Below, piece by piece: positions 10,381-64,000 of a stretch of DNA of 64,000 bases. The notes beneath the pieces are model-generated. The model worked only from the letters and a program-made list of their open reading frames with translations, searched no databases and was not told the origin of the DNA. This DNA comes from Paenibacillus thiaminolyticus (GTDB taxonomy: Bacteria; Bacillota; Bacilli; Paenibacillales; Paenibacillaceae), in NCBI RefSeq assembly GCF_007066085.1, contig NZ_CP041405.1:4357001-4421000 (forward strand), in the 5' to 3' direction. Numbering within the stretch: the first letter of the stretch is position 1; each line of letters begins with the position of its first letter. The position numbers and the translations under genes are program-made.

Positions 10381-11278
10381 GGAGGATGGGAATAGTGGTG
10401 GAGGGGATATGCCTCTTATGGACGTTCTCCCCGTGGCTCAGAAAGGTAGCAGGTGGGGGGCGGTGCTTATGGTCAATCTCCCAGCGGCTCAGGAAGGGAA
10501 GCAGGTTCGTGTGATCCTTACGGTCAGTCTCCCCACGGCTCAGAAAAAGGAACTAGTGCATGCGGCCCGGTCCTTATGGTCAATCTTCCCAAGGCTCAGA
10601 AACGGGAAACTTGTGCGTAGGGTCCTTATTGGCAATCTCCCAACGGCTCAGGAATAAAATCGTCCGGTATGAATGTAGAGACGAGCTACTTTTATTCAGC
10701 GTGTTTTCTCGAAAATAGGCCTTCATCCGTCAGGTGCAGGGGGACATGTAGCGGCGAGAAAAGAGTTGTGGGCAAGAACGAGACAGACATGGAGATGCCA
10801 CGTTGATGTACCGCCTTCCCCAAATTTATGAGCCGATGGGATTGTGACCAAAAGGACTTGAGAGGGGAGCTCTGCGGAGATGTAATCGTTGATGGGGAGG
10901 CCATATGGGAAACGCACATGCGGGCAATCTGCCAGCGGCTCAGGAACGAGAACAGTCCGGTAGGACAGCAGGCGCAAGGGATGGAGGAATTATTGAGGCA
11001 AACCAAGAGAAAGGCGTCCAACAATATTGCCGTGCTGATGTACAGGTTCTCCCGGGAGCATGAGCCGATGGGATAGTGTCCAAAAGGGAATAAAGAGGCT
11101 GCTGTGGAAGAGGAGTCGTCGATAAGAGGATGGAGGCGCGCTACCCGTGAGACCGTGATGCCCGTGATACTCGTGATACTCGTGATAACCTTCGGTAATC
11201 AGGCTCTTAACTTCTGAGGGAAGGGGATATCGGGGAGTTGATGAGCATGTACTCCCCGGTTAGCTTGGCTGTCAATCG
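10381..11278. repeat. Repeat-rich intergenic region with eight copies of a dispersed repeat
   Basis: No convincing gene in 898 bases. Five minus-strand copies of a ~29-base element lie in tandem with a 51-56 base period (10414-10443, 10466-10494, 10516-10545, 10572-10601, 10624-10653), a sixth degenerate copy is at 10921-10945, and two plus-strand copies are at 10827-10855 and 11060-11088. On the plus strand the element reads TGAGCCG, two variable bases, GGGAT(A/T)(G/A)TG, then a variable base or two and CAAAAGG. Other features: a short CGTGATACT tandem run near 11160-11187 and an 8-bp hairpin CGGGGAGT/ACTCCCCG (11231-11258). Confidence 0.8.
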
Positions 11279-12325
11279 TCATGTAGCGCGATGCATGGAT
11301 GCATGCGATGGTTCTTCTTGGACCTGGTATACAGGATACGGCTGCTGAACCGAGGCGGCGTCTTGGTGCTTGCTCGGATCGATTTCCTCCATTTCGCGGG
11401 CGGTGGGGAGGCCGGTATGTTGGATAACGAATTGGGTTACTTTGTCGGCATACCGTTCTTTGTCGTAGCAGTAGGCAACCCCATGGGTGGCCTCGTCGAT
11501 CAGCAGCAGTTCCTTCGGCTCGGGCTTAGCCTCATACATATCGATACTCATATGAGTCGGGACGAAAATATCCGCTGCTCCGTGGATGAACAGGATGGGG
11601 AGCTTGCAGGTCTCCATTACCTTGAGCGGGCTGACATCTTTCATGCTGAATCCGGCTTTGCTCTCCAGCAGAATGTCGATCAGCTTCATGAAGGGCCAGG
11701 CCGGAAGGCGATTCAGTACGGAGACCTGATGGCGTATGAGCTCTGTCAGATCGGAATAGGGACAGTCGGCCACGATGAATTTCACGAACGGATGTGAATT
11801 GGCTGCGTACTCCAGCACGGTGCCCCCGCCAAAAGACTGGCCATGCAGCCCGATGGTGCAGTCCTTTCCTTTATTCGCGATAATCCAGTCTACCCAGGCT
11901 TCGATGTCGCGCTTTTCCTTCAATCCGAAGGTGGTGCGGATCCCCTCGCTCTGTCCGTGCCGCCGCTGATCGATAAGCAGGGCATTGTACCCGAGCTTGA
12001 AGAACATGTCCATAAATTGGGCCGACCACGGAAGAGCGGATGTGTAGCCGTGGACGATAATGACGATCCGATCAGAATAGGGGTGCTTTTCAATGTAATT
12101 GCCGTGAAGCTTCAATCCGTCGTGGCTGCGAATAAAAATTTCTTCTTTATCGCAATCGTCGAATTCTTGCTTGCTGAAGACGCGGTACCGCTCCAGCAGG
12201 TCGAAGCAATTGTCGTAGGTGGCCGGTCTTTTGCGGGTCATCTGGAAGACGGCATATCTTGGAACGATCCAGGCGATGAGAACGAAGATAATGATGAGCG
12301 TGCAGGCCAGGAAGATGTAGATCAT
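11279..12325 (-). CDS. Membrane-anchored alpha/beta hydrolase (YqkD-like)
   Basis: Serine hydrolase of 348 residues. One N-terminal membrane helix (about 2-22) probably tethers the catalytic domain outside or at the membrane. Oxyanion strand motif IVHGYTS, nucleophile elbow GLHGQSFGGGT (GXSXG), acid segment around GAADIFVPTHMS, and His in DEATHGVAY. The overall pattern resembles B. subtilis YqkD-type hydrolases that are often annotated as lysophospholipase or cell-surface hydrolase. Substrate unknown. Its 3' end faces the repeat-rich region and its 5' end is divergent from cbiA. Confidence 0.82.
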   Translation of the reverse strand: MIYIFLACTLIIIFVLIAWIVPRYAVFQMTRKRPATYDNCFDLLERYRVFSKQEFDDCDKEEIFIRSHDGLKLHGNYIEKHPYSDRIVIIVHGYTSALPWSAQFMDMFFKLGYNALLIDQRRHGQSEGIRTTFGLKEKRDIEAWVDWIIANKGKDCTIGLHGQSFGGGTVLEYAANSHPFVKFIVADCPYSDLTELIRHQVSVLNRLPAWPFMKLIDILLESKAGFSMKDVSPLKVMETCKLPILFIHGAADIFVPTHMSIDMYEAKPEPKELLLIDEATHGVAYCYDKERYADKVTQFVIQHTGLPTAREMEEIDPSKHQDAASVQQPYPVYQVQEEPSHASMHRAT

Positions 12326-12502
12326 ATCCGCTTGTTCCCCTTGTCAGTTATTGTCGATACGATGGTATTAGGGTGTGCAGGAAAATGGCAATTTACACAT
12401 CCCCGGATAAGGCTGCTGCCGCGCGCCTGCGCAATCCCGGTTGGCGTTCACGGTGGAGGTTCTGTACAATGGGGAAAAAGAGATGCGAAAGGATAAGACA
12501 CC

Positions 12503-14035
12503 ATGTCCGAACTTCATTCAACTCATTCGACATTTATCGAGCGGAATCCGAAAAAGGGGCCGCGCCGGCTGCTAATTGCCGGAACCGGAAGCGGGACCGG
12601 GAAGACGACGGTCACCCTTGGGCTGATGCGGGCGCTTACCCGTCAGGGCTGGAAGGTCCAACCGTTCAAATGCGGGCCGGATTACATCGATCCGACTTAT
12701 CATACCGCCGTATGCGGAGCAAGTTCTCGCAATTTGGACGAATGGATGTGCGGATCGGAAGCGATGAGGTCGACCTTCCTCCGCCACTCCGCAGAGGCGG
12801 ATATCGCGCTTATCGAGGGCGTGATGGGGATGTACGACGGGCGCCGCGCCGACAGCGATGAGGGGAGCGCGGCTTCGATTGCGAAGCAGCTCGACTGTCC
12901 GGTGCTGCTCGTCATTGATGCGTCAGGCATGGGACGAAGCGCCGCGGCGATCGTCCTCGGCTTCCAGCAGCTTGATCCCGAGGTGCGCCTGGCGGGCGTC
13001 ATCGCGAACCGGGTTGGCAGTGAAGGCCATGGCAAGCTGATCCGTGAAGCGGTAGAGCAGGTATGCGGCGTGCCGCTGGTGGGCTACGTGCTGCGGGAAG
13101 ACGGATTGCAGGTGCCGGAGCGGCATCTCGGCCTTGTGCCGGCTGTGGAGCGAGGCGGGCTGGAGACGCTGTTCGACCGGATGGCCGACGCTGTCGAGGC
13201 GCATACGGATATGGAGGCGCTGCTTCGCATCGCGACGGTCTATACGGCGGCTCGGGAGGAAATTGCCAACGGCGGCGGCCCCAGGGAGCGGACGGACACG
13301 GAGGCTATACCCGCTGGAGAAGCGCGCCCGGCGGAAGGAGCCGGCACGGCGGCGCTGACCGGCGGGGCGGAGCGGCGGCTGAGGTTGGCGCTCGCTCATG
13401 ATGCCGCGTTTCATTTCTATTACGCGGATAATCTGGAGCTGCTCGAAGAGGCCGGCTTCGAGCTGGTGCGGTTCTCGCCGCTCCTGGACGAGCCGGTGCC
13501 CGAGGATGCCGACGGGCTTTACATCGGGGGCGGCTTCCCGGAAGCTTTTGCCGAGCAGTTGGCGCGCTGCGCCCGGACGCTCGGATCGATTCGGGAAGCT
13601 GTGGAGGCGGGCATGCCGACGTTCGCCGAATGCGGCGGATATATGCTGCTGATGGAGCGGCTCATCACCGTTGACGGCGAAGTCTGCCCGCTGGCCGGCC
13701 TGCTTCCGGGCGAGACGCGGATGGGCATGAAGCTGGCCGCGCTGGGCTACCGGGAGGTGACCGGCACGGACGGCAACTTCCTGCTGCGGGACGGGACGGC
13801 GAGAGGACATGAGTTCCATTATTCGACGATTGAGGAGCCTAAGGCCGGGCTGAAGCAAGCTTATCCTCCGGCCTATCTGTCCCGGGGAAGGGCCGGAGAG
13901 AAGCCGGAAGGAGCGGTGCATCCGGCCGGGCTGCCGCTCGTAGCCGGGTATACGCATCTGCATTTCGCGTCGAATCCGGAGATTGTGGCGAATTGGCGCG
14001 AGGCCTGTGTCGCATTTCGTCAAAAACGTATATAA
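12503..14035 (+). CDS. cbiA: Cobyrinate a,c-diamide synthase
   Basis: Glutamine-dependent enzyme of corrin biosynthesis that amidates the a and c side chains. The protein has 510 residues; ATG 12503 has AAAGGA nine bases upstream. The N-terminal ATP-binding (dethiobiotin synthetase-like) domain has a P-loop in LIAGTGSGTGKTTV and the CGPDYIDPTYH segment; the C-terminal class I glutamine amidotransferase domain has GGGFPEAFAEQLA and the nucleophile Cys in FAECGGYMLL, with the C-terminal THLHF His. A linker rich in Gly/Ala/Glu (about residues 255-295) separates them. No other cobalamin gene and no recognisable cobalamin riboswitch lies in the window, so it is isolated here and may serve cofactor salvage or tailoring. 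Confidence 0.9.
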   Translation: MSELHSTHSTFIERNPKKGPRRLLIAGTGSGTGKTTVTLGLMRALTRQGWKVQPFKCGPDYIDPTYHTAVCGASSRNLDEWMCGSEAMRSTFLRHSAEADIALIEGVMGMYDGRRADSDEGSAASIAKQLDCPVLLVIDASGMGRSAAAIVLGFQQLDPEVRLAGVIANRVGSEGHGKLIREAVEQVCGVPLVGYVLREDGLQVPERHLGLVPAVERGGLETLFDRMADAVEAHTDMEALLRIATVYTAAREEIANGGGPRERTDTEAIPAGEARPAEGAGTAALTGGAERRLRLALAHDAAFHFYYADNLELLEEAGFELVRFSPLLDEPVPEDADGLYIGGGFPEAFAEQLARCARTLGSIREAVEAGMPTFAECGGYMLLMERLITVDGEVCPLAGLLPGETRMGMKLAALGYREVTGTDGNFLLRDGTARGHEFHYSTIEEPKAGLKQAYPPAYLSRGRAGEKPEGAVHPAGLPLVAGYTHLHFASNPEIVANWREACVAFRQKRI

Positions 14036-14131
14036 TGAATCAGTACGGGTCTAAAAATGTCAAGGCCTGTATACGATATCCAGCTAGCAATGCCGCGATT
14101 GCGGCAAGTGCCGACTAGCGCCAACTATATG

Positions 14132-14160
14132 TTGACATACTTCATGCATATACGTATGCA
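14132..14160 (+). promoter_or_regulatory. Candidate asnB promoter with overlapping palindrome
   Basis: TTGACA (14132-14137), a 17-base spacer, then TATGCA (14155-14160) as a possible -10. The palindrome TGCATA-TACG-TATGCA (14145-14160) overlaps the -10, so a repressor could act here. A GC hairpin TGCCGC-GATT-GCGGCA lies upstream at about 14091-14106. Confidence 0.4.
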
Positions 14161-14183
14161 ATGATCGAAAGGATTTGGAACCG

Positions 14184-16034
14184 ATGTGTGGCATTGCCGG
14201 AATCTATCATTTTCATGATCAACAACCATCCGAACATCTCATTCGCAGCATGATGGATTTGATCCATCACCGGGGGCCGGACGATGCGAAGCTGTGGATC
14301 GGCGACCGGGTCGGCCTGGGCTTCCGCCGGCTGTCCATCATTGACGTTGCTGAAGGCGCGCAGCCGCTAAGCAACGAGGATGATTCGGTATGGATTATTT
14401 TTAATGGCGAGATTTATAACTATTTGGAGCTGCGTGAGGATCTCCTCAGCCGCGGCCATCAATTCAAAACCAATACAGATACGGAATGTATCCTGCACCT
14501 GTATGAAGAATACGGAACGAAGTGCGTCAACCATCTCCGGGGGATGTTCGGCTTCGCGATCTGGGATCGGAACAAGCAGGAGCTGTTCCTGGCCCGCGAT
14601 CATTTCGGCATCAAGCCGCTGTATTATTACATGAACGACGAGATGCTCGTCTTCGGCTCGGAGATCAAGAGCATTCTGGCCGTTCCGGGCGTGGCCCGTC
14701 AGGTCAATATGAACGGCTTTTACAACTATTTGACCTTCCAATATGTTCCGGATCCGGAGACGATGTACGCCGGCATCTATAAGCTGCCGCCGGCTCATTC
14801 GATGACGATTCCGCTGGGCGAGCAGCCTGTAATCGAGAAATATTGGGACCCGATGTTCGAACCGGTGGATCGCCCGCTTACTCAGGTTCTCGACGAGATT
14901 CGTCACGTCATGCGCGACTCGGTAGAGCATCATCTGCACAGCGAGGTGCAGCGCGGGTGCTTCCTGTCGAGCGGCATCGACTCGACGATTACGTCCACGC
15001 TCATGCGTTCCATCGAGCCGATCAAGACATTCAGCGTCGGCTTCGAGGGACCGAACGATGAGACGATTATCGCCCGCGATACGGCCCGGCAGATCGATAC
15101 CGATCACTACGATCGGATCATTACGCAGGAGATGTATTTCGACGCCGTGCCGCGCGCGATCTGGCATCTGGACGAGCCTGTGGCCGATCCGTCCGCGATC
15201 GCACTGTATGAGGTCGCGCGGCTGGCGAAGGAGCATGTTACGGTCGTGCTGTCCGGGGAAGGCGCGGACGAGCTCTTCGGCGGCTACCGCATCTATCGCG
15301 AGCCGCATTCGCTGCGCTATCTGTCCTGGATGCCGGAAGGAATGCAGCGCGTGGTGAACAAGATGGTGCGTGCCGTACCGTTTTCTTTCTACGGGAAAAA
15401 CTACTTGCTCCGGGGAACGACTCCGCTGGAGGAGCGCTTCCTGGGCAATGCCAATATTATGACCGACGATGCGAAGGCGGAGCTGCTGCGCGTCAGCGCG
15501 GATGAGATTGCGGCCTATCAGAAGCCGTTCGAGATCGCGGGCCGTTATTATGACCGTACTCGTCATCTGGATCCGGTGTCGCGGATGCAGTATATCGATA
15601 TGAATCTGTGGATGCCGGGCGACATTCTGATGAAGGCGGACAAGCTGACGATGGCGCATTCGCTGGAGCTGCGCGTCCCGTTCCTGGACCGCAAAGTATT
15701 TGACGTGGCCCGTACGATTCCTGCTTCCTACCGGATTGCCGAGAAGACGACGAAGTACGCGCTGCGCAAAGCGATGGAGGGCATTATTCCGGATTCGGTG
15801 CTCCACCGGCCGAAGCTCGGCTTCCCTGTCCCGATGCGAGATTGGCTGCGCACGGAGCGGGCCGGCATCATGTGGGAGGAGCTGGCTGCGAGCGGCATCG
15901 ATCCGCTCGTCAACCTGAGCGCGGTAGAAGAGATGTTCACCCGCCACCGCAACGGCCAAGGCGACTACTCCCGTAAAATCTGGGTGCTGTACGTGTTCGG
16001 ACTCTGGTATCGGACGTATATGCGCAAGCAATAA
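14184..16034 (+). CDS. asnB: Asparagine synthase (glutamine-hydrolysing)
   Basis: Converts aspartate and glutamine to asparagine with ATP. ATG 14184 is chosen because it exposes Cys2 (MCGIAG), the required N-terminal nucleophile of the class II glutaminase; GAAAGGA lies 10 bases before. The upstream in-frame TTG at 14175 would bury it. The protein has 616 residues, typical for AsnB/AsnO. Glutaminase motifs RGPDDAK, RLSIID, FNGEIYNY and TDTE are followed by the synthetase P-loop FLSSGIDSTI, GEGADELFGGY and the C-terminal PRPKLGFPVPMRDWL-type segment (HRPKLGFPVPMRDWL here). Monocistronic with its own promoter and terminator. Confidence 0.95.
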   Translation: MCGIAGIYHFHDQQPSEHLIRSMMDLIHHRGPDDAKLWIGDRVGLGFRRLSIIDVAEGAQPLSNEDDSVWIIFNGEIYNYLELREDLLSRGHQFKTNTDTECILHLYEEYGTKCVNHLRGMFGFAIWDRNKQELFLARDHFGIKPLYYYMNDEMLVFGSEIKSILAVPGVARQVNMNGFYNYLTFQYVPDPETMYAGIYKLPPAHSMTIPLGEQPVIEKYWDPMFEPVDRPLTQVLDEIRHVMRDSVEHHLHSEVQRGCFLSSGIDSTITSTLMRSIEPIKTFSVGFEGPNDETIIARDTARQIDTDHYDRIITQEMYFDAVPRAIWHLDEPVADPSAIALYEVARLAKEHVTVVLSGEGADELFGGYRIYREPHSLRYLSWMPEGMQRVVNKMVRAVPFSFYGKNYLLRGTTPLEERFLGNANIMTDDAKAELLRVSADEIAAYQKPFEIAGRYYDRTRHLDPVSRMQYIDMNLWMPGDILMKADKLTMAHSLELRVPFLDRKVFDVARTIPASYRIAEKTTKYALRKAMEGIIPDSVLHRPKLGFPVPMRDWLRTERAGIMWEELAASGIDPLVNLSAVEEMFTRHRNGQGDYSRKIWVLYVFGLWYRTYMRKQ

Positions 16035-16073
16035 TCCGATGCTAGTGTCGTGTAAAGCATGTTATAAGTTGAA

Positions 16074-16103
16074 AGGCGCTTCTCCTTGGAGAGGCGCCTT
16101 TTT
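16074..16103 (+). terminator. Terminator of asnB
   Basis: AGGCGCTTCTCC / GGAGAGGCGCCT hairpin with a TT loop region and TTTTT. Confidence 0.9.
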
Positions 16104-16210
16104 GTCTCATTAGAGGGGAGATACTAACATGAAAAGCCAGCCTGAAGTGGGCTTGGTGCATATCGTATAAGGATGATGCATGAAATCATCCCAAAGAGGG
16201 ACTGAGTCGT

Positions 16211-16402
16211 ATGATGATGATATTCGCCCAAAATTTTATGCTTGCGTTTGGAATCAGTATTTGTGTAAGTGTTGTTGCCTCAATTAGTCATCATCCCAAG
16301 CCGGAATATCGGTTCGGGCTGCACGATATCAAGCACAGTTTTCTGTTGGTTTTACCCCTCTCAATCCTTTTTACGATCCCGGATATTCTCTTTTTTCGAT
16401 GA
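16211..16402 (+). CDS. Small predicted membrane protein
   Basis: A 63-residue protein with two hydrophobic stretches (about residues 6-25 and 43-61) joined by a polar loop with the segment HHPKPEYRFGLHD. AGAGGGA lies nine bases before the ATG. No family was recognised. It stands alone between the asnB terminator and the convergent drug exporter gene. It could be an antimicrobial or stress-type small membrane protein, but nothing shows this. Confidence 0.45.
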   Translation: MMMIFAQNFMLAFGISICVSVVASISHHPKPEYRFGLHDIKHSFLLVLPLSILFTIPDILFFR

Positions 16403-16463
16403 CATAAGAAATCAAGCTGCAGGCCGGTCTCCCCTCGGAGATACAGCTTGCAGCTTGCTGTCT

Positions 16464-18080
16464 CTAGGCCGGTTGGGCTGAATTCCTCTCCGAGCCTTCC
16501 GTGGCAGAGCCCGGGTTGCGCTTACGGCCTGGGTCGTCGCGGGAGATGCGGCCGCTGCCGATCAGCAGGGAAATGACGATGCCGGCGATGATGAACCCGA
16601 GTCCCGTCAAAAAGACGGTTGCGAAAGATGCCGACCACGCTTCCTTGAGCGTGTCGAGCACGGCGATTTTGGCTTCGCCTTCGAGCGGCAGCATAGCTGG
16701 GTTAATCAGAAGTTGGTATAGGGTGTTCGAATCCGTCCCAATTCGGTCGAGGACGGCTTGCGTCACCGGATCGGCTTTCTGCATGGCCGCGGTGATGTTC
16801 CTTGCGATATCGGCGTTCATGATGACGTTGAATAGCGTTGTGCCAATGGTGCTGCCAATGGAACGGAAAAAGGTCGTGGCCGAGGTGACGGTTCCGAGCT
16901 GCTCGCGGGGGAAGGCGTTTTGGACCACGATGGTAATGAGCGGCATGACCAGACCCATGCCGAAGCCGAGCACCATCATGAAGCCGTAGGCCGTAAGCGG
17001 GGTCGTATGGATGCCCATCGTGGACATGAGCAAGAAGCCAAAGGCGCTGATCACCATCCCGGAAGCCATGACGGTGCGGTAAGGGAGCTTCAGCACAAGC
17101 CGGCCACCGAGCACGCTGGCGATAATGAGCGCGATCATCATCGGGGTCATGGTGGAGCCAGCCTGGGTCGGCGTCACCCCGAGGACGCCCTGCATGAACA
17201 TCGGCACGAACATAATGGCGCCGAACATTCCAAGTCCGACCAGGAAGCCGAGTCCGACGGCCACATTGAAGACGCGGCTGCGGAACAGCGACATGTCGAT
17301 CAGCGGATCGGCCGCCCGGTGCTCGATCGGAATGAAGACGAGGAACAGGATCAAGGCCGCGCCGAAAATAAACAGGCTGTAAGGGGATGTCCAGGCATAC
17401 TTCGCATGATCCAGTGACAGGCCATACAGCACCAGCACGATCCCCGGAATGAGCGTGAAGATGCCGAGCCAGTCAATATGAACCTTTTTGCTCTTGCCGC
17501 GTGGGCTGCCCATCGATTTCATCCCGATAAAAATGAGCGCCGTCGAGACGAGGCCGAAGGGGACGTTGATGAGAAAGATCCAGTGCCAGCTAATATGATC
17601 GACGATCAAGCCGCCGAGAAAAGGCCCGACGATGGAGCTAAGCCCGAAGATGGCCCCGAACGCGCCCTGCCACTTCGCCCGCTGCGCCGGGGTGAACATC
17701 ATCCCGATAATCGTCTGGGACATCGGCATCAGCAGGCCGCCTCCAATCCCCTGAATGGCGCGGTAGCCGATCAACTGTCCCATGTTGACTGCGGTGGCGC
17801 ACAGAAATGAACCGATGACGAAAATAATCCATCCGGTCAAATAAATAAACCGGCTCCCGAACAGATCAGCCAGCTTGCCGGAGAGCGGGATGACGGTAGT
17901 CGAACAGATCATGTACGCCGTTGTCACCCAGGCGAAGATGGCGAATCCGCTTAAGTCCTTAATAATGGTCGGCATGGCCGTGCCCACTACCGTCTGTTCG
18001 AGTGAGCTGAAAAACATCCCCATAATGAGACCGATGAGAACCATGTTGCGACGCGACTTCGCTATGTCTTGCACCGCCAT
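16464..18080 (-). CDS. DHA2-family (EmrB/QacA-type) multidrug efflux MFS transporter
   Basis: Proton-driven exporter with about 14 membrane helices and 538 residues. The start at 18080 (MAVQD...) has AAAGGAG seven bases upstream; the in-frame ATG at 18098 would overlap that site. Typical DHA2 features: FFSSLEQTVVGTAMPTI at the first helix (motif D1), LADLFGSRFIYLTGW (motif A), and IGGGLLMPMSQTI with GFGMGLVMPL (motif C-like). The C-terminal tail is polar. No TetR or MarR gene is adjacent. A second, only moderately similar DHA2 exporter lies at 21.6-23.1 kb, with the ECF operon between them. Confidence 0.88.
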   Translation of the reverse strand: MAVQDIAKSRRNMVLIGLIMGMFFSSLEQTVVGTAMPTIIKDLSGFAIFAWVTTAYMICSTTVIPLSGKLADLFGSRFIYLTGWIIFVIGSFLCATAVNMGQLIGYRAIQGIGGGLLMPMSQTIIGMMFTPAQRAKWQGAFGAIFGLSSIVGPFLGGLIVDHISWHWIFLINVPFGLVSTALIFIGMKSMGSPRGKSKKVHIDWLGIFTLIPGIVLVLYGLSLDHAKYAWTSPYSLFIFGAALILFLVFIPIEHRAADPLIDMSLFRSRVFNVAVGLGFLVGLGMFGAIMFVPMFMQGVLGVTPTQAGSTMTPMMIALIIASVLGGRLVLKLPYRTVMASGMVISAFGFLLMSTMGIHTTPLTAYGFMMVLGFGMGLVMPLITIVVQNAFPREQLGTVTSATTFFRSIGSTIGTTLFNVIMNADIARNITAAMQKADPVTQAVLDRIGTDSNTLYQLLINPAMLPLEGEAKIAVLDTLKEAWSASFATVFLTGLGFIIAGIVISLLIGSGRISRDDPGRKRNPGSATEGSERNSAQPA

Positions 18081-39321: not shown

Positions 39322-39567
39322 TAAAAGAAGAGAGGAACAGCTTGGTTGCGGTGAGATATAGAAGGAGACCGTGTTTTGGAAAAGGAGCAGAAAACATACT
39401 TCCTAGCACCCCCCGCAATCAGACATCATTTTCCGAATTGAAGAAATTACATAGTCAACAGTCAGAGAAGCCGTTAACCGAACCGGGCAGCACCGCAATA
39501 TCGAGTGGGAGTAAATAGTATTATGAACATTCCTGTCAGAGCCAAGATTCTGGCTTTGAAAAAAAAG

Positions 39568-39639
39568 GAGCGTCCCTTGTACAATGGGGGTGTCAACGGG
39601 TCATAGCCCTAAAAAACCCATCATCCAAGGAGGACGCTC
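39568..39639 (+). promoter_or_regulatory. Leader hairpin covering the ribosome site of the IS110 transposase
   Basis: GAGCGTCC-CTTG (from 39568) pairs with CAAG-GAGGACGCTC (ending 39639); inner bases ACAATGGGG and ACCCATCAT extend the stem partly. The 3' arm holds the Shine-Dalgarno AAGGAGG of the transposase start at 39643. Transcripts entering from outside should fold and hide the site. It may also belong to the element's non-coding RNA. Confidence 0.6.
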
Positions 39640-39642
39640 TAT

Positions 39643-40925
39643 ATGAAGTTTAAACAATCTACCGCATATAATCAACGAGTTGAACGAATTACCACGATTC
39701 ACCTTGTAGTTGGGATTGACATTGCTAAGAATACACATGTTGCACGAGCCGTCAATTTCCGTGGAATCGAACAGGGCCGTGGATTAGCATTTGAAAATAA
39801 TCAATTCGGTTTCAGTAAATTATTGAACTGGATTCGTGATTTACAAAGAAAAGTGAGCTGTCTGAAGAGATTGTTGGCTTGGAGTCTACGGGGCATTACT
39901 GGCTTAATCTTGCCGACTGGCTTTCAGAAAAGGGGATTAAAGTCGTTTTGGTCAATCCACTTACTACGAAGCGGAACAAAGAAAATCGGGATAATTCGCA
40001 GTCGAAAAATGATGCCAAGGACGCTCTCGTGATTGCGGATGTCGTTTCACGAGGGTATTACAGCGACTATAACAAGCAGGAGCCTTTTTACAGACGTCTT
40101 CGCGTAGTCGTTAACGAAAGGGAATACTGGGCCGACATCCGCGGGAATATCATGAACCGTCTCATTCGCTGGATGGATATCTATTTTCCTGAGTTCACTC
40201 AGGTCTTCAAGTATTGGGAGCAGCCTCGTCCGCTCGCTACGTTAAAGGATTTTCCGCTTCCAGCCGATGTTCTGAAGCATACTGCTGAAGACCTCGTGCA
40301 TGCCTGGAAGAAACGGATGCAACGTGCCGGCGGGAGAACCGGCCTGCTGAAGGCACAGGAGCTATTGGAGGCCTGCCGTCTGTCTGTTGGCGCTGCGGAT
40401 GCTAATGAAGAAGCGAGACGTGAAGTAAGCCGCCTGGTGGAAGATTATGAACGTCTCACTGAGCGCTTGCAGGAAATAGACCGTGAGATAGCTGCGCTGC
40501 TGGAGGAAATTCCGGAGACTGTGGAGTTATTTTCCTCCATTAAGGGGCTAAGTCCCCTCTATATTGCAGTCCTCTTAGCCAATGCAGGCGACTTGCGGCA
40601 ATTCAATCATGGCCGCCAACTGCTGTCGATGGCAGGCCTAAATCTGGCCGAAAGCATGTCAGGAAAGAAGAAGGGGCAAGTCGTCATCTCCAAACGCGGG
40701 CGGAGGCAACTCCGTAAGTATTTGTACTTGGCTGTCATGAACTTGGTCGCTCACCATCCATCCTTTAAAAAATGGCATCGGCAGAACGTAGAGGTACGGA
40801 AGATGAAAAAACAGAGATCGGTATTCAAGCTTATAGGCAAACTAGCGCGTATTCTGGTTGCCATGGCTCGGACAGGAGAAGCATTTCAAGAAGGGAGGGC
40901 AAATCCATTGACTAGAGCGGCATAG
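39643..40925 (+). pseudogene. IS110-family transposase, frameshifted
   Basis: RuvC-like DEDD plus serine transposase. The first frame (from 39643) gives VVGIDIAKNTHVARAVN with the first Asp. After LQRK (about 39852) the homologous reading continues in the -1 frame: KSELSEEIVGLESTGHYW, then KNDAKDALVIADVV with the paired Asp residues, and the C-terminal Tnp domain SIKGLSPLYIAVLLANAG...MAGLNLAESMSGKK with the catalytic Ser region. The shift falls in the A-rich stretch AGAAAAG. Read as two frames the genes cover 129 and 348 codons, and joined they reach about the usual 400-425 residues. It is either an inactivating 1-bp change or a slippage site; IS110 elements do not normally use frameshifting. 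Confidence 0.85.
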
Positions 40926-41325
40926 TGACACCGTCTGCGCAATCGTTTATCTGAAGTAGTAGTAGTTGCATACTGGCTCGTTCGCAGGAATTCAAATCGC
41001 ACGGAGGATCGAGTTCCCGTCGCTAAAGGGCCTGGACCCGTTTACTGAACATGATCGACCTCCACTCCTTGAGCAGGTATAACGAAGGAAGGTAAGGGCG
41101 TAGACCCGCTGAGACATGGGAGCGTGAATCCTCAGAGGATTGTGGAGAAACGTGCGACATGCAAGGAATAAAATGGGATTTGGATTGATCCCTCTATTCC
41201 CGCATGCCGTTGAACCGATTTCGGGTTCACCTGCCGATTCTAAATCCTGTTACTGCTTCTCAAAGGAAGATGAAATCCTGCGAATAAGCGAGTATGCAAG
41301 AGAAAAGTGCTGCCTCTAGAGGGAG

Positions 41326-41348
41326 CTATGGGGATAGTGACGAAAAGG
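41326..41348 (+). repeat. Dispersed repeat copy at the right side of the IS110 element
   Basis: CTATGGGGATAGTGA followed by CGAAAAGG; the TGAGCCG part is replaced, which may mark an insertion boundary. Confidence 0.7.
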
Positions 41349-41521
41349 CCCAAAAAGAGATGCTGTCCAATATCCACTCCCCCCAAATGAATCCCCCCCA
41401 ACAATCACCCTGGAAGCTGGCGAACCGGCAAGCCAACATCAAATATGAGCATAGGGGATAGCGGCATAAAGGAGTTGGGGCGAGCTGCGGCGGGAGACGA
41501 TATGGGACGAGGGTGCCGGGA

Positions 41522-41636
41522 CGACGGTGACAGGACGGCGGTGACAGGATGGCGGTGACAGGATGGCGGTGACAGGACGACGGTGACGGGACTACGGCGA
41601 CAGCACGACGGTGACAGGACATGGCGACAGGACGGC
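41522..41636. repeat. 14-bp tandem repeat array
   Basis: About eight copies of GGTGACAGGACGGC-type units, with GTGA/GCGA starts at 41527, 41541, 41555, 41569, 41583, 41597, 41611 and 41624 (period 14, last 13). Confidence 0.9.
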
Positions 41637-57355: not shown

Positions 57356-57370
57356 CAGCCATCAACACAA

Positions 57371-57409
57371 AACGCAGACAGGAGCGTATTCTACGCTTCC
57401 GTCTGCGTT
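57371..57409. terminator. Hairpin between kinase and cytochrome genes
   Basis: AACGCAGAC...GTCTGCGTT with an inner stem GGAGCGTA/TACGCTTCC; no clear U-tract. A short repeat of CGAGCCGYWCCTC-type units follows at about 57437-57483. Confidence 0.5.
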
Positions 57410-57496
57410 ATGCCTGTCCGGCCCGGCAGCCGCACCTCGAGCCGCACGAGCCGTGCCTCGAACCGTTCCTCGAGCCGTTCCTCTAACCATGCTCAG

Positions 57497-57838: not shown

Positions 57839-57955
57839 GGACCCCTTCCTTTCCCGTACTTTCCGAATTGTCTATGATCTTGTACTCAGTATAGGAAAGG
57901 AATTCCTCCAAAAGCAAGCTTTCCGCCACAATGTTGCAGAAGGTTCACAACTGGC

Positions 57956-58432
57956 CTACAGCTTCATGCCCATCCGGCTCTTATACCGCTTGATCAAAAT
58001 TTGCGTCTCCACGCTCATAATGCCGGGAAGGGGGTACAGCTTCTCTTGCAGAAATTGCTCCATCTCCCGGTTCGAAGCGAACAGCCCATGCATATGCAGC
58101 TTGCTCGGGCCCGTCATATGATACAGGCTCGTCACGCAGGACTCATTCGCTAATTGCTCTGCGACCTTCATCAAGTATTGGGGCTCCACCTCGACATTGA
58201 AAAAAGCCGACACCCGGATGCCCAATTTTTCCGGATTGATGACGATCGTGAATTTCTCCAATAAACCGTCTTCTATCATCGCCTGTACCCGGGCCTGTAC
58301 GGCCACACGGGACAGGTTGACCTTCTTGGCCAGATCGGTATACGAGATCCGGCTGTTGCTGTGCAGCGCCGACAAGATCATCTTATCAATCTCATCGAGC
58401 GATGAAGGGGGGATATCGTCGAAGGAGAACAT
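57956..58432 (-). CDS. Lrp/AsnC-family transcriptional regulator
   Basis: Regulator of 158 residues: N-terminal helix-turn-helix ([46 protein letters not shown]) and a C-terminal RAM/AsnC effector domain ([20 protein letters not shown]...). It lies 21 bases downstream of the DUF1634 gene on the same strand and may be part of the TauE/DUF1634 unit, which suggests control by an amino acid or sulfur compound (inference). Confidence 0.87.
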
Positions 58433-58453
58433 GCGAACACCTCCTCAAGTTCG

Positions 58454-58828
58454 TTAGCCTGCTCTGCCTATCGCCAGACTTATCATCAGAATGACGAAGA
58501 CGAGCGATGTGATAGCGACGTACATATAGTCTTTCTCTTTGGCAAAGACGAAGATCGAAATAAAAACCCGCACGACCGGGGTCATGATGAGAAGCAGCAA
58601 GCCGCCCATCATAATCGCGTAGGCTTTGCCGGCGGCGATGCCTTGTATCATCGTCGTGACGGTGGTCGGATATTCACCCTCCGGGTAGCCGCTCACTCCC
58701 GTAATTAGGAACAGAATGAGTCCGGTCACGATAACGGCCGCGCTCGTCAGGACGCCGATTCGCAAAAATGAACTGACTGCGGCCTCCACATCAAGCATTT
58801 CCTTCTCTTTATCCTTCGGTTCGTTCAT
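58454..58828 (-). CDS. DUF1634 membrane protein
   Basis: A 124-residue protein with three hydrophobic helices (about 22-44, 67-92, 100-120). Its ATG overlaps the stop of the TauE/SafE gene by four bases, so the two are translationally coupled. DUF1634 proteins are known as partners of TauE/SafE-like permeases, and this arrangement fits. Confidence 0.82.
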   Translation of the reverse strand: MNEPKDKEKEMLDVEAAVSSFLRIGVLTSAAVIVTGLILFLITGVSGYPEGEYPTTVTTMIQGIAAGKAYAIMMGGLLLLIMTPVVRVFISIFVFAKEKDYMYVAITSLVFVILMISLAIGRAG

Positions 58829-59664
58829 CCTTTACCACCTAACCCTTGTATAATCATTTGGATGGCGACATAGGCCAGTATCGGTACGAAAAGCTTGCGA
58901 ATCGTCTTATTTTTCAAGCGCTGCATAATGCGTGTGCCCAGGGTGGCTCCAATCAAGACGCCGAGGGCGACCGGAGCGGAGATGACGGGATCGATGTCGC
59001 CCCGGAACAGGTAGACGCCGGCACTGGCCGCCGCCGTTACCCCCATCATCAGATTGCTGGTTGCGCTGGATACTTTGAGCGGCAGCTTCATGAACAGATC
59101 CATGGCCATAACCTTGAAGCTTCCGCTGCCGATGCCGAGCAGGCCCGAGATGACGCCTGCGCCGTACATGACGCCGAAGCCGCCGTAAGGGTTGGCGACC
59201 TGATAATGCACTTCCTGCTGAATCGCCTTGTCATAATAATGGCTGTGCAGATTCAGCTTCGTCGCCAACGGATGGGGTTCGACTTCGGCAGGCAGGTCGG
59301 ACTTGCCCTTCTTCAGCATGGCCAAGGCAGAGTACAGCAGCAGCAAGCCGAAGATGACATAGAGCCAGTCAGGCGCGATAATCGCCCCCAAAAAAGCACC
59401 GGTAATGGCGCCTACCGTCGTCGCAATTTCAAGGAACATGCCGACGCGGAGATTCGTAATCCGGTCTTTGATATAAGCGATAGCAGAGCCGCTGGACGTC
59501 GCGATGACGGAGATAATGCTGGCTCCGATGGCATGATTAATGTCGACGCCGAACAGCAGCGTCAATGCGGGAGTGACAATAATGCCACCGCCCAGCCCAA
59601 GCACGGAGCCGACGATTCCGGCGAAGACGGAAATCAGCAGCATTTCAAAAGCAAAGAGAGTCAC
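58825..59664 (-). CDS. TauE/SafE-family sulfite or organic-anion exporter
   Basis: Membrane permease of 279 residues with about eight helices in two repeats: GIVGSVLGLGGGIIVTPALTLLFG and the second-half GVISGLLGIGSGSFKVMAMDLFM. The family exports sulfite, sulfoacetate and similar anions. GGAGATGC lies before the start. First gene of the TauE-DUF1634-Lrp unit. Confidence 0.87.
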   Translation of the reverse strand: MTLFAFEMLLISVFAGIVGSVLGLGGGIIVTPALTLLFGVDINHAIGASIISVIATSSGSAIAYIKDRITNLRVGMFLEIATTVGAITGAFLGAIIAPDWLYVIFGLLLLYSALAMLKKGKSDLPAEVEPHPLATKLNLHSHYYDKAIQQEVHYQVANPYGGFGVMYGAGVISGLLGIGSGSFKVMAMDLFMKLPLKVSSATSNLMMGVTAAASAGVYLFRGDIDPVISAPVALGVLIGATLGTRIMQRLKNKTIRKLFVPILAYVAIQMIIQGLGGKG

Positions 59665-59981
59665 GAACGCATCTCCTTTCTAAGATAGTATAAACGGAGA
59701 CCAAGGATAATTATTTTGTCGGGAAAACAGCGATATTCCATCATTGCGAAATAAAAACCCTTGGTTATATTACGATGTGTACAAATATATCACATAATCA
59801 CTTCGTTTTGTTGGTTATTGGGGAAAAACGCTTTCTATTTTGTGTGAGGGCTGCTCGTCAGTCTATCGGGATGCGGCAAAAAAGCGGGGGAGGGGATTGA
59901 ACAAATGCGTAAGGTTGTTTATCGTTAAGATCGTTAAAAAGTAAGATCCTTAATTTTAACAAACGAGAACGGGAGGCCGTC
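59665..59981. other. Intergenic region between tauE-like and mutY
   Basis: 317 bases, AT-rich in its left half, carrying divergent promoters presumably. Direct short repeats ATCGTTAA occur near 59918-59936. No gene, riboswitch or clear operator was recognised. Confidence 0.4.
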
Positions 59982-61097
59982 ATGAACGAGCAAAAACGTT
60001 ATTTCAGCCGGGAGCTGCTGAGTTGGTACCGTGCGAACCGGCGGGATCTGCCTTGGCGGCGCCATTCGAATCCGTATTATACATGGGTATCGGAAATTAT
60101 GCTCCAGCAGACTCGCGTCGAGACCGTCAAGCCTTACTTCGAGCGATTCATCGCTCTTTTCCCGACGGTCGAGGCGCTGGCCGAAGCAGCGGAAGAAGAG
60201 GTGCTGAAGGCATGGGAAGGGCTCGGCTACTATTCCCGAGCCCGCAATCTTCAAGCTGCCGCGCGTGAAGTCAAGGAGCAATACGGCGGCAGCATCCCGG
60301 ACGACAAGGCCAAGGTTTCAGCCTTGAAGGGTATCGGGCCGTATACCACGGGTGCAATTATGAGCATCGCGTTCAACCGGCCCGAGCCGGCCGTCGATGG
60401 CAATGTCATGCGGGTGCTGTCGCGTTACTTCCGCCTGCATGACGACATCGCCAAGGCCGGCACCCGCGCGCATATGGAGCATCTGGCGCAGGAATTGATT
60501 CCGGAGGGCTGTGCCTCGGAATTCAACCAGGCGCTGATGGAGCTGGGCGCGCTCGTCTGCACGCCCAAATCCCCGGCGTGCCTGCCATGCCCGGTCATGG
60601 AGCATTGTGCCGGGCGGATTGCCGGCGAGGAGTTGATGCTGCCGGTGAAGACGAAGGCGAAGCCGCCGAAGCCGGAGCTTCGCTATGCAGCCATCGTGGA
60701 AGGCGCAGGGGAGCATGCGGGCAAGGTGCTGGTGCGCCAGCGCCCGGACACCGGACTGTTGGCCCGCATGTGGGAGCTGCCCCATTTACTGGCCCCGAAG
60801 ACGGGAGGACTGCTCGATTTGCGCGAGGAAGAAGCGATGGGGGCGCTGCGGCACGGACTGCAGCCGGAGGGCGTACGGCTGCGGCCGCTCGGGCATTGGA
60901 CCGACGCCGAGCATACGTTCAGCCATATCCACTGGCAGATGCGCGTGTACCGCTGCGTAATCGAGGAGGCGCCAGACGCGATTACCGGCGGCAAATATGC
61001 TTGGATCGGGCCGGAAGAGATGGAGCGGCTGGCGTTCCCGAACTTATTTTTACGACTATTGCATGCATATTTCGCCGAGCGAGGACAGAACGGATAG
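59982..61097 (+). CDS. mutY: A/G-specific adenine DNA glycosylase
   Basis: Base-excision repair enzyme that removes adenine opposite 8-oxoguanine; 371 residues. Catalytic Glu region WVSEIMLQQTRVETV, HhH motif LKGIGPYTTGAI with catalytic Asp in PAVDGNVMRV, and the Fe-S loop C-X6-C-X2-C-X5-C in CTPKSPACLPCPVMEHC. A NUDIX-like 8-oxoG recognition domain follows (about 225-365). GGGAGGCCGTC precedes the ATG. Confidence 0.94.
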   Translation: MNEQKRYFSRELLSWYRANRRDLPWRRHSNPYYTWVSEIMLQQTRVETVKPYFERFIALFPTVEALAEAAEEEVLKAWEGLGYYSRARNLQAAAREVKEQYGGSIPDDKAKVSALKGIGPYTTGAIMSIAFNRPEPAVDGNVMRVLSRYFRLHDDIAKAGTRAHMEHLAQELIPEGCASEFNQALMELGALVCTPKSPACLPCPVMEHCAGRIAGEELMLPVKTKAKPPKPELRYAAIVEGAGEHAGKVLVRQRPDTGLLARMWELPHLLAPKTGGLLDLREEEAMGALRHGLQPEGVRLRPLGHWTDAEHTFSHIHWQMRVYRCVIEEAPDAITGGKYAWIGPEEMERLAFPNLFLRLLHAYFAERGQNG

Positions 61098-61122
61098 TAT
61101 TTTTATTTCTGCAGCGAACCTA

Positions 61123-61131
61123 TGATATAAT
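61123..61131 (+). promoter_or_regulatory. Extended -10 promoter of def
   Basis: TGATATAAT (61123-61131) is an extended -10 (TG-N-TATAAT); a weak T-rich -35 lies 17 bases upstream. The start of transcription would be just before the hairpin at 61142. Confidence 0.55.
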
Positions 61132-61141
61132 AGCACCATTA

Positions 61142-61182
61142 CGAAAAGGCAGGCCGACGGTAGACGTCATCCTGCCTTTTCG
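61142..61182 (+). terminator. Hairpin between mutY and def
   Basis: Perfect 12-bp stem CGAAAAGGCAGG (61142-61153) / CCTGCCTTTTCG (61171-61182). It may end mutY transcripts or act in the def leader; it lies downstream of the def -10 and has no U-tract of its own. Confidence 0.6.
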
Positions 61183-61207
61183 ATTTGAAATGAGGGTGAG
61201 TGTGTTT

Positions 61208-61723
61208 ATGGCTCAACGAGAAATCCTTCCTTTTGGAGATCCGATACTACGCAAAGTATGCCGTCCTGTTACCGAGGTGAACTGCCGGATTTTGGCGCTG
61301 CTGGATGATTTGAAAGATACCCTCTATGCCCGCCCTGGCCGGGCAGGCCTGGCCGCGCCGCAAATCGGCGTGCTCCGGCGCGTGCTCGTCATGGACTGCG
61401 GCGATGGGCTGATCGAATTGATTAACCCGCAGCTCCTGGAGGCTGAGGGGGAAGAAGATGGGATGGAAGGGTGCCTATCCTATCCCGGTTATTACGGCCG
61501 CGTAAAGCGATATCAGTACGTCAAAATCAGCAGCATGGATCGCAACGGAGAGACAGTCACGCTGGAGGGAGAAAACCTCCTGGCCCGCTGCATCCAGCAT
61601 GAGATGGACCATCTGGACGGAAAGCTGTTCATTGACCATGTGACTGACAGCCATCTCGTCCACGAAGCCACCCATCAATATGTCTCACTGCTCGACGTGA
61701 TTCGTCTCTCGAACAGGCAATAA
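61208..61723 (+). CDS. def: Peptide deformylase
   Basis: Removes the formyl group from nascent proteins; 171 residues from ATG 61208 (GAGGGTGAG upstream). The frame is open far upstream inside mutY in another phase, which is not coding. All three metal-site motifs are intact: GLAAPQIGV (motif 1), EGCLSYPG (motif 2, Cys ligand) and CIQHEMDHLDG (motif 3, HEXXH ligands). The short type fits type 1/3-like deformylases. Confidence 0.93.
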   Translation: MAQREILPFGDPILRKVCRPVTEVNCRILALLDDLKDTLYARPGRAGLAAPQIGVLRRVLVMDCGDGLIELINPQLLEAEGEEDGMEGCLSYPGYYGRVKRYQYVKISSMDRNGETVTLEGENLLARCIQHEMDHLDGKLFIDHVTDSHLVHEATHQYVSLLDVIRLSNRQ

Positions 61724-62426
61724 TAGATATAGGCTTATTTCCAGGAGAAGAAGGAGATTGAGCCGATTGAACAGATTGGGCAGAACCGGCTGTACGCAGG
61801 GAAACGGGGGAAGTAACGGCCCAGTCCTCTCCGGCCGGGACGACATGGAGTATGGGAAGACCTCAATTTTTTGGTTGAGGGACACCGTACAGAACAGTAG
61901 GGTTTAGAGCTCTTTTGGCCATTATCCCATCCAATCAGAAAAAAGGGGTACGGTAGCGGCGGCGGCGTTCTTGCTACTTCACAATGGCGCCAACTGAAAA
62001 ATTTTTCGGAGCACAAAACTGCAGTATATCAACCTTACCGTGCCTAGTCTAATCGCAGTCATCGCCATTCATCGCATCATCGGGCAGGCGTGTTCCCATA
62101 TAAAAAACTACCTTCTTTTTTAGTTGAAGCGCACCATTTATCACCCAAAGCAATCAGGAGACCAAATCCAAAGAAGAAGTAAACGAAACGGCAGAGTGAT
62201 CGTTGATGGACCCCCTAAAGGTGAAGCTCCGCCCAGTTGAATGTGGCGAGACTAGCCTTGGGGATTGAAAACCCGTAGGCAGCGCATCGACGCTCGCAAG
62301 GCGAGGGCCGCGTTATGGGCATGCAGAAGATACATGCAGATGGGCATCCGAACGAATGGCCTATTGTCATCGTGCAATAGAAGGGCGTTTCAACCATATG
62401 CATAGTTTTATGACATCAACAACTGC
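61724..62426. other. Repeat and structured-looking non-coding region
   Basis: No gene recognised in 703 bases. A minus-strand dispersed-repeat copy is at 61911-61938 and a CCTCAA/TTGAGG hairpin at 61861-61880. Bases about 62190-62400 look conserved and structured on the plus strand (segments CTCCGCCCAGTTGAATGTGG, GAAAACCCGTAGGCAGCGC, CTCGCAAGGCGAGGGCCGCG) and could be the non-coding end of an insertion sequence. Confidence 0.45.
61911..61938 (-). repeat. Dispersed repeat copy
   Basis: On the minus strand: CTGATTGGATGGGATAATGG followed by CCAAAAGA. Confidence 0.75.
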
Positions 62427-63386
62427 CTATGCAGCGGGAATTACATAAGAGGTGTTCGAGCCACGCGCATTACGGAACGACAAGCATGAACGCAATAAAT
62501 TGCTCCGCGATGCTGTTCCATCGGCTGCTGCATTATGGCGGAAACAGAACTCATCCAAGTACAGTTGGAGGTAAGTAGATCCAATGCCGTGAAACGTATT
62601 ATTCATCCATTGCCAGGCACGCTTAAATGTCTGATACAGGAAGCCCTTGCGCCGGACGTGGAAGTAATAACGAGTAATGGAGACGGTAGAATCGCAATGG
62701 GCATGCAGCTTGGCGAATTCATCGCAGCCTGTGCGCAAGAGCGATTTGCCGGAGCAATGCATCCGGTCAACGATCTTCATCTTAATCCTCCGGGTATGGG
62801 TGACTTGTTCGTTCATTTCTATAACAGAAAGTGAATTGGCGGAATCGGAGTTGGTGGAATCAGAATTGGCGGACTCCGCGATGCCGGACTCAGCAACAAT
62901 GATCGGGCTCTCGCGCTCATGGAGAAGGATAGGCGAATAAAAGGGACGACCATAGAAAGCGACGATGCCATGCACCGCTCCCTCCAATGGTTGAGCAGTG
63001 TCGGCACGGCTAATGGCCGTTCGAATCTTATGAAGCATTGACCAGGCCGTCTTATAAGTTACTTGAATGAGGGACCGGAGTTGAACCGCATTGAAAGACA
63101 GGTCGGTACGAGAGACGAGCCAGATTGCCGTAAGCCACTTCCATAGCGCCGTACGGCTTCCCTCCATTATCGTTCCTGCTATAAGGGAAGTCTGATGGCG
63201 GCATGCGCGGCAATCATACAGAGGCAGCCGACGAGTCTTGATGACATAAGCCTCCCCATGATGGCAACGCGGGCATACAAACCCAGAAGGCCACTTCATA
63301 TGAAACAAGAAAGAATTGATCTCGGCTTCGTTATGTAACAATTGGAGTAGTTCTTCCACGCTATGAATCGACTCCCAGCTGCTCAT
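62427..63386 (-). CDS. IS1595-like transposase (zinc-ribbon type), catalytic residues uncertain
   Basis: Protein of 319 residues; ATG 63386 has GAGGAGGG nine bases upstream. N-terminal zinc ribbon with CPRC and CRAC pairs (FVCPRCHHGEAY, LYDCRACRHQTSLIAGTIME), then the IS1595 segment WKWLTAIWLVSRT and a C-terminal WMNNTFHGIGSTYLQLYLDEFCFRHN. The middle region that should carry the first catalytic Asp reads AVHGIVAFYGRPF with no Asp, and a Ser/Asn-rich low-complexity insert (ESANSDSTNSDSANS) follows. It may be an inactive or divergent member. No clear terminal repeats were found around it. Confidence 0.68.
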   Translation of the reverse strand: MSSWESIHSVEELLQLLHNEAEINSFLFHMKWPSGFVCPRCHHGEAYVIKTRRLPLYDCRACRHQTSLIAGTIMEGSRTALWKWLTAIWLVSRTDLSFNAVQLRSLIQVTYKTAWSMLHKIRTAISRADTAQPLEGAVHGIVAFYGRPFYSPILLHERESPIIVAESGIAESANSDSTNSDSANSLSVIEMNEQVTHTRRIKMKIVDRMHCSGKSLLRTGCDEFAKLHAHCDSTVSITRYYFHVRRKGFLYQTFKRAWQWMNNTFHGIGSTYLQLYLDEFCFRHNAAADGTASRSNLLRSCLSFRNARGSNTSYVIPAA

Positions 63387-63422
63387 ACCGTTTCCCTCCT
63401 CGAAAAATACGGGAACATACAT

Positions 63423-64000
63423 TCCTGCACCATTATACCGAACTAACGTTCTTGTTTCAAGTAATTGTTTGAAAATTAATCCAATAAATTGGTCGTTACC
63501 GTCTCCGCTCTTTATCTTCCTATCTGAAGAACTTTAACCCCCTAATACTTTACTTTCCGAAGCTGTGTTAGAAGCCATGTTAAAAGACGTAAGGTGAGAT
63601 GTTTCATCGATAACAAGCATACTTTTTTGAAATGAATGCCTATCTATTGCCTTTGCGTCACTATCCCGTTGAATCAGCTTGAGTGGAGGGGATAATGGAC
63701 AAAAGGACATAAATATAGGCACTGTGTGATTCGACAAGAAGGAACGTCTGGGCAAAGCAAAAAGGGAAATACAGGGAAATAGGCGATGTTAATAGATGCT
63801 AACGTGAACTCACTAGTGAACTCAGACGTGGGCAGGGTCGAAGTTCGGCATTGCCAGGGTGGTGCTGAGGAGTAACGTGCTTGATGGCCGGGTGTGGCGG
63901 AGGTATTTGACTGTGACGGCGGGAGTCAGCAATAGGAGGACAACGGGAGTGGCCAATAGGCGGGACAACGGAAGGTAAGCAGCCCAGGGGGGGCGAAGGC
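63423..64000. repeat. Intergenic DNA with inverted pair of dispersed-repeat copies
   Basis: No supported gene. Two copies of the dispersed repeat stand head to head at 63650-63677 (minus) and 63680-63707 (plus). The last 100 bases contain short imperfect repeats of GGAGGACAACGGGAGT / GGCGGGACAACGGAAG type. The frame at 63534-63755 (minus) crosses both repeats and is not credible. Confidence 0.65.
63650..63707. repeat. Head-to-head pair of dispersed repeat copies
   Basis: Minus copy CTGATTCAACGGGATAGTGA then CGCAAAGG; two bases further the plus copy TGAGTGGAGGGGATAATGGA then CAAAAGGA. Confidence 0.8.

What the first reader, a model, noticed from the sequence alone, without database searches (positions are those of the whole stretch)
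10414..63707. Dispersed intergenic repeat family with at least 14 copies, one tandem array
The same ~27-29 base element (TGAGYCG, two variable bases, GGGATARTG, one to two variable bases, CAAAAGG) occurs at 10414, 10466, 10516, 10572, 10624 (minus, tandem with ~52-base period), 10827 (plus), 10921 (minus), 11060 (plus), 39131 and 39295 (minus), 41326 (plus), 61911 (minus), and 63650/63680 (inverted pair). All copies are between genes and both insertion sequences in the window are flanked by them. This looks like a REP- or MITE-like family, not explained by any gene here. The array at 10.4 kb suggests local amplification of the element with its flank.
Basis: seen in the sequence. Interest (0 to 1): 0.75.

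Follow-up and report, generated by a model that had tools for sequence, protein, structure and literature searches.

The report
Transposase-derived twin repeat arrays
Hundreds of copies of a 27-base DNA box, set in paired outward-facing tandem arrays between genes of a soil bacterium, appear to be partnered with a family of retired transposase proteins whose own genes sit inside such arrays; both appear to be kept by natural selection, much as centromere satellites are partnered with a tamed transposase in mammals.

Summary
Its unit is a 27-bp non-palindromic box, CTGAnnnnAnGGGAKAnTGnnCAWAAG; the host belongs to the Paenibacillus thiaminolyticus/dendritiformis group. I counted 401 copies (>=9 bits) in 432 kb of this genome. 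They form twin arrays: minus-strand boxes left, a centre, plus-strand boxes right (46 of 49 two-strand clusters), with arm-specific periods. Of 80 such loci in other genomes, 80 have the expected box on the left and 75 on both sides (reversed control 0). In 198 genomes of the order, all 56 with boxes carry the gene. Most arrays and all eight gene loci are syntenic across related species, with array copy number changing. Protein (dN/dS 0.12-0.27) and box appear under purifying selection. Best reading: a tamed DDE transposase plus its end-derived binding sites, analogous to REP/RAYT and CENP-B/box but neither; no RAYT was found. Binding and cellular role are inferred, not shown.

The parts
10415..10650 (-). 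left arm of element 1: five boxes at 10415, 10466, 10517, 10573, 10625, period 51-56
   Evidence: 24.1-32.7 bits; TRF period 51; orthologous arms of 4 boxes in G001, 15 in G011 and at least 3 in G007, where the stretch fetched begins at the first box
10651..10828 (.). centre of element 1
   Evidence: between innermost minus and plus boxes
10829..11086 (+). right arm of element 1: boxes 10829 and 11061 (a weaker minus box at 10917-10942 breaks the order)
   Evidence: 29.6, 33.1 and 13.5 bits
11215..11240 (+). weak outlying box of element 1
   Evidence: 10.7 bits
39137..39321 (-). left arm of element 2: boxes 39137 and 39296
   Evidence: 26.7 and 33.9 bits
39524..41326 (+). IS110-family insertion inside element 2 (transposase read in two frames, 39643-40032 and 39879-40925); right end placed only to about 15 bases
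   Evidence: PF01548/PF02371; 39524-41340 aligns at 99.6% over 1818 columns with a second copy in L067
41322..41471 (+). right arm of element 2: boxes 41322 and 41446; the first abuts or overlaps the IS110 end
   Evidence: 23.3 and 20.7 bits; junction
61912..61937 (-). left box of element 3 (gene-bearing)
   Evidence: 31.4 bits
62427..63422 (-). partner gene: IS1595-type protein, 331 aa, zinc ribbon present, first catalytic Asp absent
   Evidence: PF12760 49 bits; PF12762 21.9 bits (cut-off 27), model 121-153 only; NF033547 71.9 bits (cut-off 75); syntenic in G001 and G011, truncated in G007, group G
63651..63676 (-). extra minus box right of the gene, head to head with the next
   Evidence: 26.9 bits
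63680..63705 (+). right box of element 3
   Evidence: 33.5 bits

Best explanation
A two-part system derived from an IS1595-type insertion sequence. Part one is a family of proteins (7 genes in this genome, one of them truncated) that keep the zinc ribbon, helix-turn-helix and an integrase-like fold but have lost at least the first catalytic aspartate. Part two is a 27-bp box, once the transposon end, which marks the ends of gene-bearing elements and of some fifty gene-less intergenic elements. Shown: anatomy, co-occurrence, synteny, variable copy number, signs of purifying selection on protein and box, and one locus that lacks the gene but keeps the arrays. Inferred: the protein binds the box; tandem copies arise by slippage or unequal exchange of box plus spacer; arrays are kept because clustered, oppositely facing boxes hold protein and bridge or loop DNA between genes. 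The last step is the least certain (about 0.3 within this explanation).
For: All 7 catalytically altered genes of the genome have a minus box to the left and a plus box to the right, while the genome's canonical IS1595 copy has none in the 1.1-1.4 kb of flank read on each side. In other genomes (80 loci of Paenibacillus, Cohnella, Ammoniphilus and an unnamed Paenibacillaceae; the best 80 kept of 433 found): left box 80 of 80, both boxes 75 of 80; with the full matrix alone 70 of 80; reversed control 0; 3 of the 5 misses have under 660 bp of contig left. Repeats imply the gene: 15 of 15 in 30 genomes and 56 of 56 in 198 genomes of the order (Fisher 4.7e-31, relatedness ignored; both sets include the own genome and overlap). 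Eight gene loci are syntenic, 7 of them in all four species; dN/dS 0.12-0.27 in 39 pairs. Sixteen array loci plus the window's first were traced in 2-3 other species; 14 of 17 have both arms in every species traced, with copy number changing, e.g. 6-/3+, 21-/6+, 11-/5+, 11-/14+ at L091. Conserved box positions diverge 0.068-0.088 between species against 0.256-0.308 at variable box positions and 0.253-0.338 between boxes. Of 22 invariant columns in 83 proteins, 19 lie in the zinc ribbon and helix-turn-helix part and none is Asp or Glu. In G000 one locus lacks the gene that three relatives have there but keeps both arms.
Against: No binding shown; no expression data. NCBI's own model NF033547 of 6 of these proteins IS1595 family transposases, and PF12762 passes its cut-off in 3 of 6, over part of the domain. 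Nearly invariant acidic residues remain (E20, E75, D129, E159, E256; 77-82 of 83), so another active site is not excluded; only the first catalytic position could be aligned well. Close gene copies exist in some relatives: best pairs 97% in Cohnella silvisoli, 96% in Paenibacillus sp. 32O-W, 93% in Ammoniphilus resinae; the last two lack the first Asp. Some arrays at different loci of this genome share 70-73% identity over 120-270 bases (L043/L044/L046/L052/L087; L050/L054), so arrays have spread or exchanged in the past. Decay exists: one gene absent and one truncated in G000, one truncated in G007; 9 of the 80 relatives' frames contain stops. Arms are missing at L054, L085 and L089 in one or more species. 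Of 79 genomes with the gene, 23 show no box at the strict cut, and G019 has 17 gene matches but 1 box, though boxes with a diverged 3' half escape the model.
Confidence: 0.64

Rival explanations
1. An ordinary, slowly moving insertion sequence and its MITEs: the box is the terminal inverted repeat, multiplied at the ends, and the protein still transposes, perhaps with a rearranged active site.
For: The box sits as an inverted pair at both ends of the gene. Closely similar gene copies occur in three relatives. Cohnella silvisoli copies keep an Asp at the first catalytic column and align over about 1.5 kb, 91-93%. NF033547 recognises 5 of 6 own proteins. Some arrays share 70-73% identity between loci.
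Against: First Asp in 4 of 86 aligned proteins, all C. silvisoli. No 8-bp target duplication in 30 single-pair elements at any of 20 offsets. Gene loci and most arrays syntenic. The seven gene copies of this genome share at most 73% protein identity. Purifying selection at fixed places.
Confidence: 0.21
2. A box-protein pair kept for its own sake (selfish but nearly immobile), like REPIN/RAYT populations, with no use to the host.
For: Patchy presence across the order (56 of 198 genomes with boxes, 79 with the gene); several paralogues per genome; some decay.
Against: Purifying selection at gene-less arrays in fixed positions is not expected for copies that do not spread.
Confidence: 0.22
3. 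Binding sites of a host regulator or nucleoid protein unrelated to the IS1595-type gene, with the gene merely inserted near such sites.
For: Most arrays have no gene: 58 of 62 box-bearing intergenic regions gave no match to the protein.
Against: Boxes on both sides of the gene, facing the same way, in 75 of 80 loci; no box at the cut in the 119 gene-less genomes of 198.
Confidence: 0.06
4. Strict REP/BIME elements served by a RAYT.
For: Intergenic, inverted, tandem arrays, gene flanked by inverted repeats.
Against: No hairpin; no Y1 transposase found in the genome, while controls ring in 5 of 14.
Confidence: 0.01

Closest known systems
REP/BIME sequences with RAYT (TnpA-REP)
   Same: Intergenic repeats; partner gene bounded by two inverted repeats; tandem modules; abundance tracks the gene; domesticated transposase (PMC2817692, passages read; PMC8266576, abstract read).
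   Different: Partner is IS1595/DDE-derived, not HUH Y1; box is not palindromic; two outward arms instead of alternating orientation (one exception, L069); several paralogues in this genome.
CENP-B and the CENP-B box
   Same: Tamed transposase that lost activity, with its box in tandem satellite arrays (PMC8997354, passages read).
   Different: Unrelated transposase family (recalled) and a bacterium; some fifty short arrays scattered over one chromosome; binding unproven.
IS1595 family insertion sequences
   Same: Zinc ribbon, inverted ends, recognised by NF033547 in 5 of 6 own proteins.
   Different: First catalytic Asp absent, no 8-bp target duplication seen, ends multiplied in tandem, vertical inheritance in the group studied (family features from PMC8101967, passages read).
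BrickBuilt minisatellite MITE of Porphyromonas gingivalis
   Same: Intergenic element joining inverted ends and a tandem array (PMC4596501, abstract read).
   Different: There 23-nt repeats without spacers lie between subunits with small inverted-repeat ends; here the inverted box itself is amplified in each arm with arm-specific spacers, and a partner gene is proposed.

Membership tests
IS1595 family insertion sequence | N-terminal zinc ribbon (PF12760) | tested here: met
   44-53 bits, over the cut-off, in 6 of 6 full-length proteins
IS1595 family insertion sequence | complete C-terminal DDE domain with its catalytic motif | tested here: not met
   first Asp in 4 of 86 rows, none of them from this genome; PF12762 matches at most model 113-153, in 5 of 6, over the cut-off in 3, canonical P0008 matches 1-150; second and third catalytic positions not placed. 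Against: NF033547 over its cut-off in 5 of 6
IS1595 family insertion sequence | terminal inverted repeats | tested here: met
   inverted boxes on both sides in 75 of 80
IS1595 family insertion sequence | 8-bp target duplications (usual in the family) | tested here: not met
   0 of 30 single-pair elements with >=7/8 matches at offsets 0-19; old insertions can lose them
REP/RAYT | Y1 HUH transposase | tested here: not met
   PF01797: 0 in the genome; controls 5 of 14
REP/RAYT | palindromic, hairpin-forming repeat | tested here: not met
   z -0.97 to 1.25 for 10 boxes; no consensus pair in 130
REP/RAYT | gene bounded by inverted copies of an abundant intergenic repeat | tested here: met
MITE | short non-autonomous inverted-repeat element with target duplications and empty sites | tested here: inconclusive
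   gene-less inverted elements exist; target duplications of gene-less elements not tested; at L054 G001 lacks the array, but no clean insertion boundary was defined
CENP-B-like domesticated transposase with box | inactive transposase that binds a box inside satellite arrays | not testable with these tools
   inactivity only inferred from the lost Asp; binding needs an experiment

The most novel reading that the evidence does not exclude
A bacterial counterpart of the CENP-B/satellite pairing: a tamed DDE transposase family binds its former transposon ends, now some fifty outward-facing tandem arrays between genes, and bridges or partitions the chromosome; array length is a fast-evolving tuning knob.
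Probability: 0.25. Interest if true: 0.9.

Novelty: new variant of a known kind. Interest (0 to 1): 0.74.

Why it matters
[quoted passage not shown] This would be an independent pairing of a tamed transposase with an intergenic repeat, from an unrelated transposase superfamily, in Gram-positive bacteria, with satellite-like arrays in which box and protein both look selected. It gives a tractable system for asking why genomes keep transposon ends after transposition stops, and variable-number loci that could serve for typing in this group.

Tried and rejected

Limits: copies were counted only in 432,278 bases of this genome, not all 6.6 Mb. Model R1 was built from 43 of the 53 matches and R2 from 130 of 145 boxes picked. 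The test starts from boxes detected in G000, which biases conserved positions by up to about a factor of two (my estimate; the observed ratio is 0.22-0.31), and counts only columns in locally >=60% identical windows. In one search two truncated genes were left out. Gene calls are my own. On checking, confidence was lowered from 0.66 to 0.64 and the insertion-sequence rival raised from 0.20 to 0.21, because searches had been left out.
Full report
Check. The window is bases 4357001-4421000 of a single 6,612,442-base contig. All 14 reported copies are present and two weaker ones were added; chance is excluded.

Architecture. A sequence-only model gave 163 matches in the genome, of which 150 were listed. 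I read 56 regions around the listed ones plus the window. A weight matrix found 376 copies at >=9 bits against 4 on reversed sequence; with the extra gene loci the count is 401 distinct copies in 432,278 bases, in 76 clusters (gaps under 1.2 kb), 60 of them with two or more copies. In 46 of 49 clusters with both strands (of 61 clusters, gaps under 2.5 kb) every minus copy lies left of every plus copy, so the CTGA ends face a centre, often 100-250 bp; the three exceptions are L069, L092 and the window's first element. The two arms of one element often have different periods and spacers, for instance 43 against 50 bp, or 41 against 56. Of 373 copies examined, 3 fell in predicted genes, which cover about 0.71 of those regions. 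Some arrays at different loci share 70-73% identity over 120-270 bases.

Partner gene. Four long-centred elements, including the window's 61.9-63.7 kb element, hold an IS1595-type gene. PF12762 found seven places in the genome. Six are genes of this kind, each with a minus box on the left and a plus box on the right; the seventh, the canonical L099 with its DDE domain intact, has none in the 1.1-1.4 kb of flank read. One further gene of the kind, in L082, is not among the PF12762 matches and also lies between minus and plus boxes. In 80 loci from other genomes (the best 80 kept of 433) the left box is present in 80 and the right box in 75; the same test on reversed loci gives 1 and 0. With the full matrix alone, 70 of 80 have both. 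Three of the five misses have under 660 bp of contig left. Eight of the 80 matched frames contain one or two stops and a ninth ten.

Co-occurrence. In 30 genomes (own included), boxes were found in 15 and the gene in 16; all 15 are among the 16. In 198 genomes of the order (own included, partly the same genomes) the figures are 56 and 79, again fully nested; I compared the printed lists by eye. In the set of 30, genomes with one or two gene matches have 3-4 boxes, about what the ends of the genes need; those with six or more have 30-149, except G019 (17 gene matches, 1 box). Genomes with three or four gene matches have 3, 12, 43 and, in G025, none.

Age and selection. Using flanking-gene synteny, 16 array loci and the window's first element were traced in G001 and G011, and all but one in G007. 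In 14 of 17 loci both arms are found in every species traced, with similar periods and copy numbers that vary up to several-fold; the exceptions are L054 (no box in G001, plus boxes only in G007), L085 (one minus box in G001 and G011, none in G007) and L089 (minus boxes only in G007). Gene loci form eight syntenic groups, seven of them in all four genomes. dN/dS is 0.12-0.27 in 39 pairs; two truncated genes (L301, L307) were left out. Conserved box positions differ between species at 0.068-0.088, variable box positions at 0.256-0.308 and sequence between boxes at 0.253-0.338. Within 30 arrays of this genome (113 units) the figures are 0.081, 0.212 and 0.206. At the eighth locus this genome lacks the gene but keeps both arms, as alignment to G011 shows (L314). 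Because three relatives have the gene there, loss is likelier than gain; this is one way in which gene-less arrays can arise.

Mobility. No 8-bp target duplication surrounds 30 single-pair elements, and the seven gene copies of this genome share at most 73% protein identity. Elsewhere there has been more recent multiplication, in C. silvisoli over about 1.5 kb at 91-93% with its own tandem boxes. So the family as a whole is not settled everywhere; the group around the window looks domesticated.

How it most likely works. Shown: anatomy, association, synteny, signs of selection. Inferred from these: the protein binds the box with its zinc ribbon and helix-turn-helix; tandem copies come from slippage or unequal exchange of box plus spacer; selection keeps clusters of boxes facing outward from a short centre. 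The role I think likeliest is DNA bridging or insulation between transcription units, at about 0.3 within the main explanation.

Comparison. It works like REP/RAYT and like CENP-B with its box but belongs to neither. It descends from the IS1595 family, and NCBI's model still names it so, but it fails two of that family's features as tested here.

Noticed in passing
window 39524-41326; L067: Two 99.6% identical IS110 copies, both with the right end next to box-like sequence; possible targeting of the box.
   Followed up: partly
L063 about 5000-6100 (genome about 2522000-2523100): A CRISPR-like array (translated repeat VASYADAWIEI) lies between a minus/plus box pair and a plus box.
   Followed up: no
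window 41504-41636: 14-bp tandem repeat GGGACGACGGTGAC beside element 2, unrelated to the box.
   Followed up: no
L127, L134, L136 (Paenibacillus sp. 32O-W): Partner genes 92-96% identical in the pairs compared while much of the flanking arrays is far less alike (66-76% in pieces for L127/L136): possible gene conversion between paralogues.
   Followed up: partly
L069 (genome 3452066-3452447): The one array with alternating box orientation, BIME-like.
   Followed up: no
L177 3994-4131 (Cohnella silvisoli): Right side carries a 42-bp tandem repeat, apparently without the box, next to a single box.
   Followed up: no
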